Source: Methanothrix sp.
GTDB lineage: Archaea > Halobacteriota > Methanosarcinia > Methanotrichales > Methanotrichaceae
DNA length: 32,441 bases
Direction of reading: 5' to 3'
Assembly (NCBI RefSeq): GCF_024518575.1
Contig: NZ_JANIHG010000017.1
Coordinates: 1-32,441 of the forward strand
Each line of letters begins with the position of its first letter. Position 1 is the stretch's first letter. Positions 9,961 to 20,527 of the stretch are shown here, piece after piece. A program made the position numbers and the translations under genes. The notes under the pieces are model-generated. The model searched no databases and was not told the origin of the DNA. It saw only the letters and a program-made list of their open reading frames with translations.

Positions 9961-10580
9961 GATCCCACCACCGGCATCATCAGATACACTGCCATCGAGA
10001 TCAGGATGACGATCGCCGAGGCCTTCACGCCAGAAAGATGAAGCGCGAAAAGCGCGGCTGCTCCAGACATCAGACAAACAGGAGCCACCCTCCGGTCCCT
10101 CAGCTTCGGATATGGCAGAGTGCTCACCATTAGGGCCGAGAGAAGGATCATCACTCCAGATGTAAAAATGAGCGAGTCCAGAAGCAGGCTGACACCAAGA
10201 ATAATACCTGCAGCTGTTATGGGGAGTCCCTCGAAGTGCGTCCATTCCGGTGGAGAGATGTTGTACCTTGCGAGCCTGAGCATTCCGCAGAGCACGTAGA
10301 GGGAGCAGAGGATCAGAAGATACGGCTCGCTGTGCATGAAGAACGCCATAGCGGCAGGGGCAACCCCAAAAGATACCAGATCGGCAAGCGAATCCAGATG
10401 AGGGCCCAGCTCGCTCTGCTCGGATCTCCTTGCAACAATGCCATCAGCTCCGTCGAAGAGCGCTGCTGCTATAATCAGGAGCACCGAGAGGCCCCGGAGC
10501 TCGAGGTGCGCTGAAATCATGGCGCTGAAACCTGATATCGCGTTCAGAAGGGAGAGAAGATCCTGCGCTCTGAGCCTCAT
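9939..10580 (-). CDS. pssA: CDP-alcohol phosphatidyltransferase, probable archaetidylserine synthase
   Basis: Integral membrane enzyme, 213 residues from the ATG at 10580, which transfers serine to a CDP-activated archaeal lipid. The CDP-alcohol phosphotransferase signature is intact: DGADGIVARR, then G, then DSLADLVSFG with the three catalytic Asp residues, followed by about six hydrophobic segments. The start at 10580 (MRLRAQDL) gives an ATGA overlap with the end of psd, while the frame's earlier ATG at 10625 lies inside psd. The neighbouring decarboxylase makes serine the likely head group. It shares an operon with archaeosortase. Confidence 0.92.
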   Translation of the reverse strand: MRLRAQDLLSLLNAISGFSAMISAHLELRGLSVLLIIAAALFDGADGIVARRSEQSELGPHLDSLADLVSFGVAPAAMAFFMHSEPYLLILCSLYVLCGMLRLARYNISPPEWTHFEGLPITAAGIILGVSLLLDSLIFTSGVMILLSALMVSTLPYPKLRDRRVAPVCLMSGAAALFALHLSGVKASAIVILISMAVYLMMPVVGSCTLRER

Positions 10581-11164
10581 TCCTTCAGCTCCGCTATAAC
10601 CGTCTGGCCGGCGCGGACGTGCCATCCCTTTTGTGCGGTGATCCTGTATCCTGGCGGGGCTGTGACTATCACTCCTGAACCGAATCTGATCATCCCCATC
10701 CTCTGTCCGCGCTTCAGCCTGTCGCCGGGCGATACCCAGCAGACCACCCTTCTCGCGGCTATTCCGGAGATCTGCTTCATGGTGAAGCGCCCTGTCTCAC
10801 TCTCGATCTCTATGATGCTGTGCGCGTTCTTTAGCGGATGACGGAACGCCGGCGAGTGATCTCCGCTTCGAAACTCAACGCTTCTAACAACCCCATCCAA
10901 AGGAGATCTGTTCACGTGGACATCCATCGGCCCCATGAATATGTAGATATGGTGATCATCTGCCTCAACTATTCTCCCATCCGCCGGCGATAGCATACCC
11001 TCCCCATCAGGAAACCTCTCAGGATCACGGTGGAAGTGTATCATGAAAGCTGTTGTGAGCAAAAAGATCAGTGAAAGCGCGGTGCTCAAGGGGTAAACCA
11101 GGATGGATGCAGCAAACGGAATCGCAACCCATGGAAGCGATCCCTGGGCGAGACCGAACCTCAA
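10577..11164 (-). CDS. psd: Phosphatidylserine/archaetidylserine decarboxylase proenzyme
   Basis: Pyruvoyl enzyme that converts archaetidylserine to archaetidylethanolamine. The short archaeal-type protein (about 195 residues) has two N-terminal hydrophobic segments, FHRDPERFP, SPADGRIV, MDVHVNRSP and, near the C-terminus, RFGSG, where cleavage before Ser would generate the pyruvoyl group. The long frame to 11686 overlaps artA completely and is not the gene. No ATG precedes the conserved region; TTG at 11164, overlapping the artA stop as TTGA and preceded by GGAGG, is the best start. The adjacent synthase gene supports the substrate assignment. Confidence 0.9.
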   Translation of the reverse strand: MRFGLAQGSLPWVAIPFAASILVYPLSTALSLIFLLTTAFMIHFHRDPERFPDGEGMLSPADGRIVEADDHHIYIFMGPMDVHVNRSPLDGVVRSVEFRSGDHSPAFRHPLKNAHSIIEIESETGRFTMKQISGIAARRVVCWVSPGDRLKRGQRMGMIRFGSGVIVTAPPGYRITAQKGWHVRAGQTVIAELKE

Positions 11165-11922
11165 ACCTCCAGCCTCCTGGATGCCCTGAGCTCGGCGAAG
11201 AGATCTTCGATCAGCGCGAGCAGCTCCGGCAGAATCGCAAAGACCATGTACGCTATTAGGAGCAGCACCAGTGTGGATCCCACCTTGGCGATCACGTTGT
11301 GCGCCAGGTAGAAGCTGTCCTGCCCGAACCACTCCTCTCCGTAGGCCAGGAGCACGAAAGCGTTCCTGCCGATATTGAGAGTGTATATCGTCGCAGTGGA
11401 GAGCATGAGAGCCCCAAGCCTTCTCGCCCTTGGGGCTCTGACCGAGAGTATCACGCCTGCGAACAGCGCGATGCTCTCTATGGCTGTGCACGCGAGCACG
11501 ATCTCCACCGATCGGCCGTTGAGGGTCAGCAGGTTCCAGCTCTCCATCGAGACAGGAATGTTCAGTCCGGCAAGCAGCCAGAAGGTCAGAAGCGTCGTCC
11601 ACCTTATCAGGATCTCCGATAAGCTCTGGACCTCTGCGAATGGGAAGTAGAGGAGACCACAGATGGCAGCTGCCATGCTGATCCATTCAGCTGTATCAGA
11701 CATCCCCATGGAGAGGATCCTCCAGCCAAAGTAGAAAGATATCGCAGCAGCTCCGATGACCACCATCACGTTGAAGTAATCCTTTATCGAGGTGTAGTGC
11801 CAAGCCTCCATGAGCCAGTACGCCCCAAGAAACAGCCATCCTGCACCGGAGATCCCGGGGCGTCTTGTGATCGAGGAGATTAGAAGCAGTATCAAGCTGA
11901 GCCAGAGTATGCCGCCTGTCAT
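11161..11922 (-). CDS. artA: Archaeosortase A (exosortase family)
   Basis: Membrane transpeptidase-like protein of 253 residues with about eight hydrophobic segments. The archaeosortase catalytic triad is visible: Cys in LACTAIES, Arg in NIGRNAFVL and His in LAHNVIAK. ArtA processes surface proteins that carry a C-terminal PGF-CTERM-type signal and attaches them to membrane lipid. In Haloferax, PssA and PssD are needed for full ArtA-dependent processing, and here the same three genes form one overlapping operon. It is the first gene of the operon; a TATA-like sequence at 11945-11952 lies 23-30 bases before its ATG, suggesting a leaderless transcript. No CTERM substrate was found in this window. 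Confidence 0.88.
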   Translation of the reverse strand: MTGGILWLSLILLLISSITRRPGISGAGWLFLGAYWLMEAWHYTSIKDYFNVMVVIGAAAISFYFGWRILSMGMSDTAEWISMAAAICGLLYFPFAEVQSLSEILIRWTTLLTFWLLAGLNIPVSMESWNLLTLNGRSVEIVLACTAIESIALFAGVILSVRAPRARRLGALMLSTATIYTLNIGRNAFVLLAYGEEWFGQDSFYLAHNVIAKVGSTLVLLLIAYMVFAILPELLALIEDLFAELRASRRLEV

Positions 11923-12042: not shown

Positions 12043-12867
12043 ATGAGACGTGAGCATCTTGCGTTTGTGCCTCTCTCTGTTCTCGCTGCAGCCCTTCTGC
12101 TCTCAGTGCAGTTTGCGCATACAGAGAGCGTGAAGATCGATCCCGCGGTTGAGAGGATGATGAGCAGCGACGAGCCGGTACCTGTGATAGTGATTTTCAG
12201 AGATGGATGCTCCCCCGATCTCGATGGTATAGACGTTCGGTACAGATACCACCTCATAAACGGGATATCCGCGGTCTGCGACAGGGCTGAGATAAAAAGG
12301 CTCGCTGAGGATGATGGTGTGGAGGGGATATACCTGGACGGAGATGTGAGCGTCACAGCCCCGATCCCCTCGCAGGGCGGTGATTCCATCTGTCCATCTG
12401 AGATGGTCGATGCTGAGAGGGTGTGGGCTGAGGGAATTAACGGCTCTGGAGTGATCGTGGCCATCATAGACTCTGGGATCGATAAGAACCATCCAGATCT
12501 CCTGGGCAAGGTCATCGGCGAGAAGAACTTCGTGGAGGGTGAGGACACGACAGAGGATCTTGTCGGGCATGGAACGCTCTGCGCTGGCATCATCGCCGGC
12601 TCGGGAATGGCATCCGGCGGCAGATACAGGGGAATAGCACCCGGAGCGCGGCTTCTGAACGTCAGGGTTATAGGAAGCGATGGCAACGGAAAGGTCTCAG
12701 ATATAATCGCGGGGATCGAGTGGTCTCTCGATAACAACGCCAGGGTTCTGAGCCTGAGCCTGGCAGGGCTGAACCTGGGCGAGACGAATCCTCCGGTCAC
12801 GATGGCCGCGGATAAAGCGATGGATGCCGGAGCGGTGGTATGTGTTGCAGCCGGAAACAACGGTTAA
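12043..12867 (+). CDS. Subtilisin-like serine protease, N-terminal half (split or broken)
   Basis: A 274-residue piece of an S8-family protease. It has a signal peptide (residues 1-27, hydrophobic core at 7-25), a propeptide-like region (about 45-105), and the first part of the catalytic domain with Asp143 (IIDSGID), His176 (GHGTLCAG) and the oxyanion Asn272 (AAGNNG). It stops at a TAA directly after AAGNNG, before the catalytic Ser region. The rest of the domain continues in another frame starting five bases later (next feature). The ATG at 12043 is chosen over 12013 because GGAGGAGCT precedes it. It may be half of a pseudogene or the first chain of a two-piece protease. Confidence 0.85.
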   Translation: MRREHLAFVPLSVLAAALLLSVQFAHTESVKIDPAVERMMSSDEPVPVIVIFRDGCSPDLDGIDVRYRYHLINGISAVCDRAEIKRLAEDDGVEGIYLDGDVSVTAPIPSQGGDSICPSEMVDAERVWAEGINGSGVIVAIIDSGIDKNHPDLLGKVIGEKNFVEGEDTTEDLVGHGTLCAGIIAGSGMASGGRYRGIAPGARLLNVRVIGSDGNGKVSDIIAGIEWSLDNNARVLSLSLAGLNLGETNPPVTMAADKAMDAGAVVCVAAGNNG

Positions 12868-12871
12868 ATTA

Positions 12872-15364
12872 ATGGTTCTCGCTGGTCTGCTGCTCGCCCT
12901 CAGCGGATGCATCGATTCTCCAGGAGATGGCGTGAAGGTCATAACTGTGGGAGCTACAGATTGCCGGGGCCATATAGCAGACTTCAGCGGGTCCGGGCCG
13001 ACAAGGGATGGCAGAACGAAGCCGGACATCGTCGCCCCGGGGGTGAACGTCATCGCATCGGCTCCTTTGGGTCTCAAGGATCTCAAGTATGTTGATACAT
13101 ACTATGCGAGATCATCAGGGACATCGCTCTCAACGCCTGCTGTTGCAGGCGTCGCTGCGCTTCTCCTACAGAAGGATCCCTCGCTGAGCCCTGCAGGTGT
13201 GAAGGCCGCGCTCTTGAAGGGCGCGGTCCGGCTGAACAACACGCTAGGGGAGGAGTACGAGCCTTACTACCAGGGAGCTGGGCTTGTGAACGCCTACAAC
13301 TCATACAGACTCCTGAATGATGATCTGTGCGGTGTTATGCCTGATCGCTGGATGGTGGGTAGATGGGCGTTCATGAGCGGCGGGAAGGCGGTCTCTGCAG
13401 GTCTCGACTCAGGCGCTGACAGGCCGCAGAAGAAGATATACGCGCTCGCCCCAGGCGACGAGGACTGGACCACCAGGTTCGTGTTCTTCACCGACAGAGC
13501 GCGCGAGAACCTGAGCGTTGATGTGAGAGGGGATGTCGCGGGCTGGATAACGGTCATGGATCTGCCGGAATCTCTACCTAAAAACAGCCATGCAGTCTTC
13601 GGCGCGAGCATAGCAGTGCCAAACGGAACCCCACCCGGGGTCTACACCGGAGCGATGGAGATCAGCGAGAAGGGCACACCCATAATCACAGTGCCTGTGC
13701 GTGTTGAGGTCGCTGCGCCCCTGATCACTGCAATGGGAAGCGCATCAGTTGCCGACGAGATCGCGCCTGGATCCTGGCGCTACTACTATCTCGATGTGCC
13801 TCTGGGAACACAGCAGATAAGGAGCAGGCTGAGCTGGTCCGGAAGCTCAGACATGGATCTCTTCCTCCTCGCGCCGACGAGTGAGTACTATCATGAGGAT
13901 GTTTCGAGTGGCATGGAGGAGACCGTTCTCAACAACCCCGCCTCAGGCAGATGGATTCTGGCGGTGCATCAGAGGAATGCGAGCATCTCAGAGAGATACC
14001 TGCTCAGGGTCGAGAGGTCTTTTGTGAGGAGCGAGCCGGCTGCATGGGATGCCGGCGCTGTGATGCCCGGCGGAGAGGCATCTGTGAGCATCCGGCTCCG
14101 GAATGAAGGTCTTCCGCTCAGGAACATCAGCTACAGCGGCATCGTGGAGAACAGCACAGCGTTCAGCATAGACGGTTATGTGAGCGAGAGGCTCTCCTGG
14201 ACCGCGAAGTTCGATGTCCCTGAGGATGTGCGGCGGCTCTCACTCAGACTGCTCTGGGATAACCCGAAGAGCGATCTCGATCTCAGGCTTTACTCGCCGA
14301 ACGGGAGGCTTGCAGCTAGATCAGAGGGTTATGAGAGCATCGAGGAGATCCAGGTCTACGACCCCCCTCCTGGGAGCTGGACTGTCGTTGTCATAGGCTA
14401 TGATGTCTTTTCTGATAAACAGAAATTCACGCTTGTAACAACGCTCCACACCAGAGAGCCATGGGGATGGCTCGATGTTTCAGGTCCAGATGAGATCCAG
14501 CCTGGCACAGCTTCAAACGTCAACCTCACACTCAGAGTGCCTGAGGTCGCGCCCGGAAAAGAGGTCCGCGGGTACCTGGAAATTCGAGGGGACAACAGCT
14601 CCCTCGAGATACCTGTCACCGTCACAGTCGCAGGCGCCACTGTAGAGGGCCTGGATAACATCAGCTTTGAGGACAAAGATCATGATGGATTTGCAGATGC
14701 GCTCTCCATAATGGTCGCGGTGAATGCTGTTGTTCCTGGCGTTTACAGAGCTGAGGGCGGGCTCTTCGACTGTTCTGGCCGAATGATAAAATGGATGAGC
14801 AACTCCTCATATATCAGCGGCACCGGCAATATCGAGCTCAGGGCAGATGGCAGAGAGATCTGGAAGATCGGTGGATGCGGCCCTCTCACTCTCAGAGAGA
14901 TCATCCTCTACGGAGAGGATGGCGATGTTTTGGAGGTGCACAACCAGACAACAATCATCGAGAGAAGCCCCTCCGACTTCCAGCCGCCCCAGGCGTACTT
15001 CAGCAGGAGCTTTGCAGACATGAGCGAACGCATAGGAGGCAGGATAAGCAGCCTCGTTATAGGTGTCGGGGTGACGGTCAACGTCCCCGGAACCTACACG
15101 ATCACGGCCAAGCTCAGGAACGATGATGGCGATGTGATAGGGGAGGTCGCGAACGCGACATCGCTGAGAAAAGGAAACAGCACCGTCGCTCTCAGGTTCA
15201 ACCCGACGAAGTTCGTGATGCTCGGAGAGCGTTCACGCCTCCATCTGACAGACCTCAAACTGATCTCGGGAGATGAGGTCCTGGACAGCATTGATGAAGC
15301 ATGGTCGAGCAGCCCGATGGAGCCGGCCGACTTCACAACAGAGAGGGCGATCGTCTCGATCTGA
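12872..15364 (+). CDS. Subtilisin-like protease, C-terminal half with PPC-like beta domains
   Basis: About 830 residues from the ATG at 12872. After the short sequence MVLAGLLLALSGC, which looks like a lipoprotein signal with a Cys13 lipobox, it resumes the S8 catalytic domain at IDSPGD and carries the Ser nucleophile in GTSLSTPAVAG. Downstream are beta-rich modules: two pre-peptidase C-terminal (PPC)-like domains, recognised by SDMDLFLLAP and KSDLDLRLYSP, and further Ig-like stretches. Many Asn-X-Ser/Thr sites fit an extracytoplasmic protein. There is no PGF-CTERM tail or terminal anchor. No strong SD precedes 12872, so expression would need reinitiation after the upstream TAA or a frameshift. 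It lacks the catalytic Asp and His and is not a complete protease alone. Confidence 0.8.
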   Translation: MVLAGLLLALSGCIDSPGDGVKVITVGATDCRGHIADFSGSGPTRDGRTKPDIVAPGVNVIASAPLGLKDLKYVDTYYARSSGTSLSTPAVAGVAALLLQKDPSLSPAGVKAALLKGAVRLNNTLGEEYEPYYQGAGLVNAYNSYRLLNDDLCGVMPDRWMVGRWAFMSGGKAVSAGLDSGADRPQKKIYALAPGDEDWTTRFVFFTDRARENLSVDVRGDVAGWITVMDLPESLPKNSHAVFGASIAVPNGTPPGVYTGAMEISEKGTPIITVPVRVEVAAPLITAMGSASVADEIAPGSWRYYYLDVPLGTQQIRSRLSWSGSSDMDLFLLAPTSEYYHEDVSSGMEETVLNNPASGRWILAVHQRNASISERYLLRVERSFVRSEPAAWDAGAVMPGGEASVSIRLRNEGLPLRNISYSGIVENSTAFSIDGYVSERLSWTAKFDVPEDVRRLSLRLLWDNPKSDLDLRLYSPNGRLAARSEGYESIEEIQVYDPPPGSWTVVVIGYDVFSDKQKFTLVTTLHTREPWGWLDVSGPDEIQPGTASNVNLTLRVPEVAPGKEVRGYLEIRGDNSSLEIPVTVTVAGATVEGLDNISFEDKDHDGFADALSIMVAVNAVVPGVYRAEGGLFDCSGRMIKWMSNSSYISGTGNIELRADGREIWKIGGCGPLTLREIILYGEDGDVLEVHNQTTIIERSPSDFQPPQAYFSRSFADMSERIGGRISSLVIGVGVTVNVPGTYTITAKLRNDDGDVIGEVANATSLRKGNSTVALRFNPTKFVMLGERSRLHLTDLKLISGDEVLDSIDEAWSSSPMEPADFTTERAIVSI

Positions 15365-20433: not shown

Positions 20434-20527
20434 GCCGCCGTGGCTTAGCCCGGTTAGAGCGGCTGATTCGTATGAGCATCTGCTCCGGGATATCAGCAGT
20501 TCATGGGTTCGAATCCCATCGGCGGCT
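20434..20527 (+). tRNA. tRNA-Thr(CGT) with a 19-nt intron
   Basis: Folds as a full cloverleaf: acceptor stem GCCGCCG with CGGCGGC, D arm GCT/AGC, anticodon stem GCTGA with TCAGC, variable loop AGTTC, and T arm ATGGG-TTCGAAT-CCCAT. The anticodon loop is 26 bases, so an intron at the canonical position after base 37 (20473-20491) must be removed, leaving TTCGTAA with anticodon CGT at 20469-20471. The unpaired base after the acceptor stem is T, as is usual for archaeal tRNA-Thr. CCA is not encoded. Confidence 0.93.
20473..20491 (+). other. tRNA-Thr intron
   Basis: Nineteen bases (TGAGCATCTGCTCCGGGAT) between tRNA positions 37 and 38, the canonical archaeal site cut by the splicing endonuclease at a bulge-helix-bulge. 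Confidence 0.85.

What the first reader, a model, noticed from the sequence alone, without database searches (positions are those of the whole stretch)
12043..15364. Subtilase split between oxyanion Asn and catalytic Ser, with a lipoprotein-like signal at the break
The first frame ends AAGNNG-stop. Four bases later an ATG begins MVLAGLLLALSGC and runs straight into IDSPGD of the same catalytic domain. The joining segment is 46 bases, about twice the expected loop and out of frame. The second chain could be a lipid-anchored half that complements the secreted first half, or an unusual insertion may have killed the gene.
Basis: partly seen in the sequence, partly recalled or inferred. Interest (0 to 1): 0.6.

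Follow-up and report, generated by a model that had tools for sequence, protein, structure and literature searches.

The report
Ancient split protease with lipid-anchored half
In Methanothrix and related archaea a secreted protein-cutting enzyme is made as two separate chains, broken in the middle of its active site, and the second chain carries its own fat-anchor signal; relatives show that the break is old, inherited and apparently later healed in one branch, so it is neither a sequencing error nor a dead gene.

Summary
The break is real and conserved. Window ORF A (12043-12867) ends AAGNNG-TAA. ORF B runs to 15364 in the +1 frame. All six genomes of the genus (including a single-contig one) have the same break. 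So do three other Methanotrichaceae genera, one copy in a further genus, and four genomes of a second family of the class at about 35-37% identity. Catalytic Asp, His, Asn and Ser are kept. B always keeps hydrophobic-[SAW]-G-C-I-[DN]. In the second family B lies in a different relative frame, with its own ATG and a Shine-Dalgarno site over A's stop. That argues against one programmed frameshift or bypass. That start gives MLQPETTVKLMVLAGLLLALSGC, a better lipoprotein signal. The longest invariant run in the genus (30 nt) coincides with this overlap. Most other Methanotrichaceae have one fused ORF with a hydrophobic relic at the same spot; the tree favours split first, fused later, but does not prove it (AU p=0.078). 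Best reading: a two-chain subtilase, one half secreted, one lipid-anchored, assembling at the membrane. Assembly and activity are inferred.

The parts
12043..12867 (+). ORF A: N-terminal half of a subtilase (hydrophobic export signal, propeptide-like region, catalytic half with Asp, His and oxyanion Asn), ending AAGNNG-TAA
   Evidence: Translation; Pfam Peptidase_S8 E 5.9e-28, profile 1-154 of 288; best PDB match 3afg ProN-Tk-SP, residues 40-274, E 2e-40
12043..12126 (+). Likely Sec signal peptide of A (MRREHLAFVPLSVLAAALLLSVQFAHTE)
   Evidence: Read from the translation; inference, no predictor run
12469..12471 (+). Catalytic Asp codon (IIDSGID)
   Evidence: Invariant column D116 of alignment A5; motif present in split forms
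12568..12570 (+). Catalytic His codon (GHGTLCAG)
   Evidence: Invariant column H149 of A5
12856..12858 (+). Oxyanion Asn codon (AAGN)
   Evidence: Invariant column N245 of A5
12829..12838 (+). Shine-Dalgarno-like GGAGCGGTGG upstream of the GTG start of B
   Evidence: Anti-SD duplex -9.7 kcal/mol; synonymous recodings reach it in 5-7% for most of the genus (14% in G045), but some fused relatives also score about -9: suggestive only
12842..12844 (+). Most likely start codon (GTG) of ORF B, overlapping A by 26 nt
   Evidence: GTG in 10/10 split Methanotrichaceae copies (5 lineages) against 8/37 fused
12841..12870 (+). 30-nt invariant run (TGTGTTGCAGCCGGAAACAACGGTTAAATT) covering the start of B and the stop of A
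   Evidence: Longest invariant run in a 2.8-kb gap-free alignment of six species of the genus
12842..12907 (+). Lipoprotein signal peptide of B (MLQPETTVKLMVLAGLLLALSG)
   Evidence: Hydrophobic core and G-C kept in all nine aligned split sequences
12908..12910 (+). Lipobox Cys, would-be lipidated first residue of mature B
   Evidence: Invariant C23 in alignment A2; SGCID/AGCID/WGCID in 10/10 split against PGLID/PSLID in 28 of 37 fused
12842..15364 (+). ORF B: lipoprotein with the C-terminal catalytic half (Ser), a PPC domain and further C-terminal domains
   Evidence: Pfam Peptidase_S8 E 3.7e-24, profile 164-288; frame read from ATG 12824
13124..13126 (+). Catalytic Ser codon (SGTSLSTP)
   Evidence: Invariant SGTS in A2
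13778..13969 (+). PPC domain
   Evidence: PF04151, E 2.1e-12
11161..11922 (-). Archaeosortase A gene, divergent neighbour kept across most of the family
   Evidence: TIGR04125 E 2.2e-64; places in 50 genomes

Best explanation
This is a functional two-chain subtilase encoded by two overlapping, probably translationally coupled genes. Chain A is exported by its own signal peptide and carries the propeptide-like region, Asp, His and oxyanion Asn, ending right after AAGNNG. Chain B starts at GTG 12842, is exported as a lipoprotein, is anchored by the Cys encoded at 12908-12910, and carries the catalytic Ser and C-terminal domains. The two chains would assemble outside the cell into one subtilisin fold whose missing bond lies in the loop after the oxyanion Asn, so the enzyme is docked on the membrane at a loop beside its active site. 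Shown: the conserved split, catalytic residues, lipobox and overlap start, and purifying selection. Inferred: separate translation, lipidation, assembly, activity, and that fused relatives arose from split ones.
For: (1) Same split in all six genus genomes, in G002, G004 and G006 (other genera), in one copy of G021, and in all four genomes of a second family that hold the gene. (2) In the second family B sits in another relative frame (+2, not +1), with ATG five bases after A's TGA and the SD-like GGGTGATC (GGAGTGATC in G165) over that stop. (3) The lipobox G-C is invariant in split forms; Cys is lost in 31 of 37 fused ones. (4) GTG at the homologous position in 10/10 split against 8/37 fused. 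(5) The longest invariant run in the genus alignment is exactly the overlap. (6) B catalytic part pN/pS 0.04, B rest 0.18 within the genus; third codon positions vary about tenfold more than first or second in A. (7) Asp, His, Asn and Ser motifs kept in split forms (for G205 the Ser pattern was missed only because it reads SGTSTSTP, same call). (8) A fused relative folds and matches Tk-SP with the hydrophobic segment as a low-confidence loop.
Against: No proteomics, transcript or activity data for either chain. G004's lipobox has Trp before Gly (IWGC), which is unusual. The SD-like signal in Methanotrichaceae does not stand out from some fused relatives. The conserved +1 offset within Methanotrichaceae alone would also fit frameshifting. 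An AU test does not reject all split copies forming one clade (p 0.078).
Confidence: 0.77

Rival explanations
1. Programmed +1 frameshift at GGN-stop: ribosomes slip at the A stop and make one continuous chain AAGNNG-KLMVLAGLLLALSGC-IDSPGD, like the fused relatives.
For: All Methanotrichaceae split copies keep the stop right after Gly and the +1 offset; the shifted product would look like the natural fused proteins of g8 (AAGNLDERLLLLMLVASSVCLGCVESPGD).
Against: The second family has offset +2 with an independent ATG and SD; stop and Gly codons vary (GGT TAA, GGT TGA, GGT TAG, GGA TAA); a slip would need no start codon or lipobox Cys, yet both are kept; no unusual RNA structure (z 0.16).
Confidence: 0.1
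2. Spliced or bypassed insert: an archaeal bulge-helix-bulge mRNA intron or a gene-60-like hop removes the segment and restores a normal loop.
For: The segment is roughly one loop too long, and the window holds a tRNA that appears to carry an intron, so the splicing enzyme is probably present.
Against: The segment keeps a coding-type hydrophobic pattern and G-C, and fused relatives translate it; no stable structure above shuffles; the segment's length varies among relatives but B always stays open with a signal peptide.
Confidence: 0.04
3. Pseudogene or recent inactivation.
For: Interrupted catalytic domain.
Against: Conserved across genera and a second family, strong purifying selection on both sides, catalytic residues kept.
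Confidence: 0.02
4. Two chains are made, but they are not a protease: B is a surface lipoprotein and A a separate protein or decoy, repurposed after the split.
For: No activity data; B carries long non-catalytic domains.
Against: Catalytic motifs of both halves stay intact and the catalytic part of B is the most constrained stretch (pN/pS 0.04).
Confidence: 0.07

Closest known systems
Tk-SP (Thermococcus kodakarensis subtilisin-like protease, PDB 3afg)
   Same: Propeptide plus catalytic domain architecture; best sequence and fold match
   Different: Single chain, no break, no lipobox or hydrophobic segment at the oxyanion loop
Fused subtilases of other Methanotrichaceae (e.g. L018, L020, L015)
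   Same: Orthologous, mostly next to archaeosortase A, hydrophobic segment at the same place
   Different: One ORF; lipobox Cys mostly lost; the Gly of AAGNxG lost; long insert in most
Split genes of archaea such as Nanoarchaeota, and archaeal fusion/fission families (PMC3655853, PMC11237513)
   Same: One ancestral protein encoded as two genes
   Different: Here the cut is inside the active site of an exported enzyme and each half has its own export signal; the fission survey's main text does not mention subtilases
Archaeal lipobox proteins (PMC2945643)
   Same: Hydrophobic core followed by Gly-Cys
   Different: The mature part begins with half a catalytic domain

Membership tests
Peptidase S8 (subtilase, PF00082) | Asp, His, Ser triad and oxyanion Asn in the canonical motifs | tested here: met
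   invariant columns; Pfam hits of both halves
Peptidase S8 (subtilase, PF00082) | One continuous catalytic chain (typical of the family; not a sequence-family criterion) | tested here: not met
   Stop and frame change after AAGN[NS][GE] in 14 copies
Peptidase S8 (subtilase, PF00082) | Proteolytic activity | not testable with these tools
   Needs expression and assay
Archaeal lipoprotein | Signal peptide with hydrophobic core and lipobox G-C | tested here: met
   PMC2945643 reports strict Cys and Gly at -1 in 98%
Archaeal lipoprotein | Lipid attached to Cys after cleavage | not testable with these tools
   Needs mass spectrometry or labelling
Programmed +1 frameshift gene | Conserved frame offset and slippery stop context in all homologues | tested here: not met
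   Offset +1 in one family, +2 in the other; codons at the stop vary
BHB mRNA intron or bypass element | Conserved RNA structure at the junction | tested here: inconclusive
   Single-sequence folds no better than shuffles (z 0.16 and -0.59); covariation not tested

The most novel reading that the evidence does not exclude
An enzyme cut through its own active site has been kept as two separately exported chains for the age of two archaeal families, because the new N-terminus gives a lipid anchor beside the substrate pocket. One branch later re-fused the genes and turned the old signal peptide into a membrane-touching loop, so membrane docking at this loop, and control by the soluble half, is what selection keeps.
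Probability: 0.4. Interest if true: 0.78.

Novelty: new variant of a known kind. Interest (0 to 1): 0.64.

Why it matters
No naturally split subtilisin was found in the papers searched; most subscription literature was out of reach. If it works as argued, it is a natural two-piece protease whose activity depends on assembly at a membrane, and a rare case where gene fission and later re-fusion can be read from a fossil signal peptide. It also warns that such genes will be annotated as frameshifted pseudogenes, and it offers a natural split site for engineering subtilisins.

Tried and rejected
Assembly error or killing insertion: rejected by conservation. ATG 12872 as the start: not conserved. 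RNA structure at the junction: nothing above shuffles. ORF A alone folds with mean pLDDT 78.5 for the best of five models, the other four 46-58, so whether A is stable alone is not settled. The anti-SD energy test in Methanotrichaceae was only suggestive. The first dN/dS figure for A (-690..-18) is inflated by an unaligned indel and is not used. Literature searches for split or two-chain subtilisins found nothing relevant. A sample of 393 genomes across the phylum gave only weaker, ordinary-looking matches outside the two families, but those loci were not each checked for a break.

Full report
What is there. ORF A (12043-12867) is the N-terminal half of a subtilase and stops after AAGNNG; ORF B continues the same catalytic domain in the +1 frame to 15364. 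Pfam splits the Peptidase_S8 profile between them, 1-154 in A and 164-288 in B. The window belongs to a 1.66-Mb genome (G000), and its nearest named relatives are Methanothrix sp. and Methanotrichaceae records.

The break is conserved. Named relatives at 90%, 88% and 47% identity have the same stop after NNG and the same +1 frame. All 50 genomes searched in the family have some match to B, mostly a full-length homologue. Reading each junction gave two states. Split: all six genus genomes (GGT TAA), G002 (GGA TAA), G006 (GGT TAA), G004 (GGT TGA) and one copy in G021 (GGT TAG). Fused: genus g8 with AAGNLDERLLLLMLVASSVCLG[C/G]VESPGD, and the other genera (g2, g4, g6, g10 and nearly all of g9) with AAGNRN-(long insert)-LLLLVPIVLALPPGLIDSPGD or similar. 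A second family of the class (four genomes, 35-37% identity) is also split. There A ends AAGNS[GE]-TGA, and B begins MGANKLVMIGLLAVMLILTSGC or MPTNKLVLIGLLMVMLMVSGC, five bases after the stop, with GGGTGATC (GGAGTGATC in G165) over the stop, in relative frame +2.

GTG at 12842 is in all ten split Methanotrichaceae copies, and in 8 of 37 fused ones, where it is only a Cys-Val codon choice (Fisher p 8e-6, which ignores kinship; by lineage it is 5 of 5, with chance 0.29-0.50 each from synonymous recoding). From GTG, B begins MLQPETTVKLMVLAGLLLALSGC, with a Lys before the hydrophobic core. Across six species of the genus the longest invariant run in 2.8 kb is 30 nt, 12841-12870, which is this overlap.

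Selection. Within the genus, the catalytic part of B has pN/pS 0.04 and the rest 0.18. In A, third codon positions vary at 47% against 4-6% for the first two. The signal segment changes freely among hydrophobic residues (M-V-L-A-G, M-A-F-F-V, A-A-F-F-V) while LLLALSGC nearly always stays, as expected for a signal peptide. G-C is invariant in all split forms, whereas 31 of 37 fused forms lack the Cys. Literature on archaeal lipoboxes gives a strictly conserved Cys and Gly at -1 in 98% (PMC2945643).

History. In the tree of the two catalytic halves, with the junction left out, the second family's split copies branch below Methanotrichaceae, whose split and fused copies are sister groups; the label needs two changes. 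Either the split arose once and was later fused in one branch, or it arose twice at the same place. The hydrophobic segment in the fused proteins, with the Cys still present in six of nine g8 copies, looks like a leftover signal peptide and favours the first. Ordinary subtilases of other relatives have a nine-residue loop there and no such segment. The tree alone does not settle it: forcing all split copies into one clade is not rejected (p 0.078), and the fused group's support is modest (86/71). The G021 split copy sits on a 4-kb contig while a fused copy lies elsewhere in the same 66%-complete genome, so it may be a paralogue or contamination.

Mechanism. The simplest account is two separately translated, separately exported chains that assemble outside the cell. 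A fused relative gives a model with pTM 0.77 whose best PDB match is ProN-Tk-SP; the junction segment is a low-confidence loop. The break therefore falls just after the oxyanion Asn, in the loop that in subtilisin BPN' follows residue 157 (numbering and general knowledge). Lipidation of B's first residue would hold this face of the enzyme at the membrane. In the fused branch a hydrophobic loop stands in the same place, which hints that membrane contact there is the kept feature. Substrate is unknown. The gene is divergent to archaeosortase A in most of the family, which suggests, no more, a role at the cell surface; in the second family archaeosortase lies on other contigs.

Verdict. The dead-gene reading is out, the frameshift reading is unlikely, and the two-chain, lipid-anchored reading is the best supported, with assembly and activity still to be shown.

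Noticed in passing
20434-20527 (+): tRNA of 94 nt whose anticodon ARAGORN cannot read; by eye a tRNA-Thr(CGT) with a roughly 19-nt intron after position 37.
   Followed up: partly
10577-11686 (-): Phosphatidylserine/archaetidylserine decarboxylase domain with a roughly 180-residue N-terminal extension that has no Pfam match, beside archaeosortase A.
   Followed up: partly
L019 and L055 (genome G021): One genome holds both a split copy (short contig) and a fused copy next to archaeosortase A: paralogue or contamination.
   Followed up: partly
L014-L017, L021, L024, L028-L030 (fused genes): Fused subtilases carry a highly variable 30-70-residue insert directly after the oxyanion Asn, followed by a conserved hydrophobic LLLLVPIVLALPPGLIDSPGD.
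   Followed up: partly
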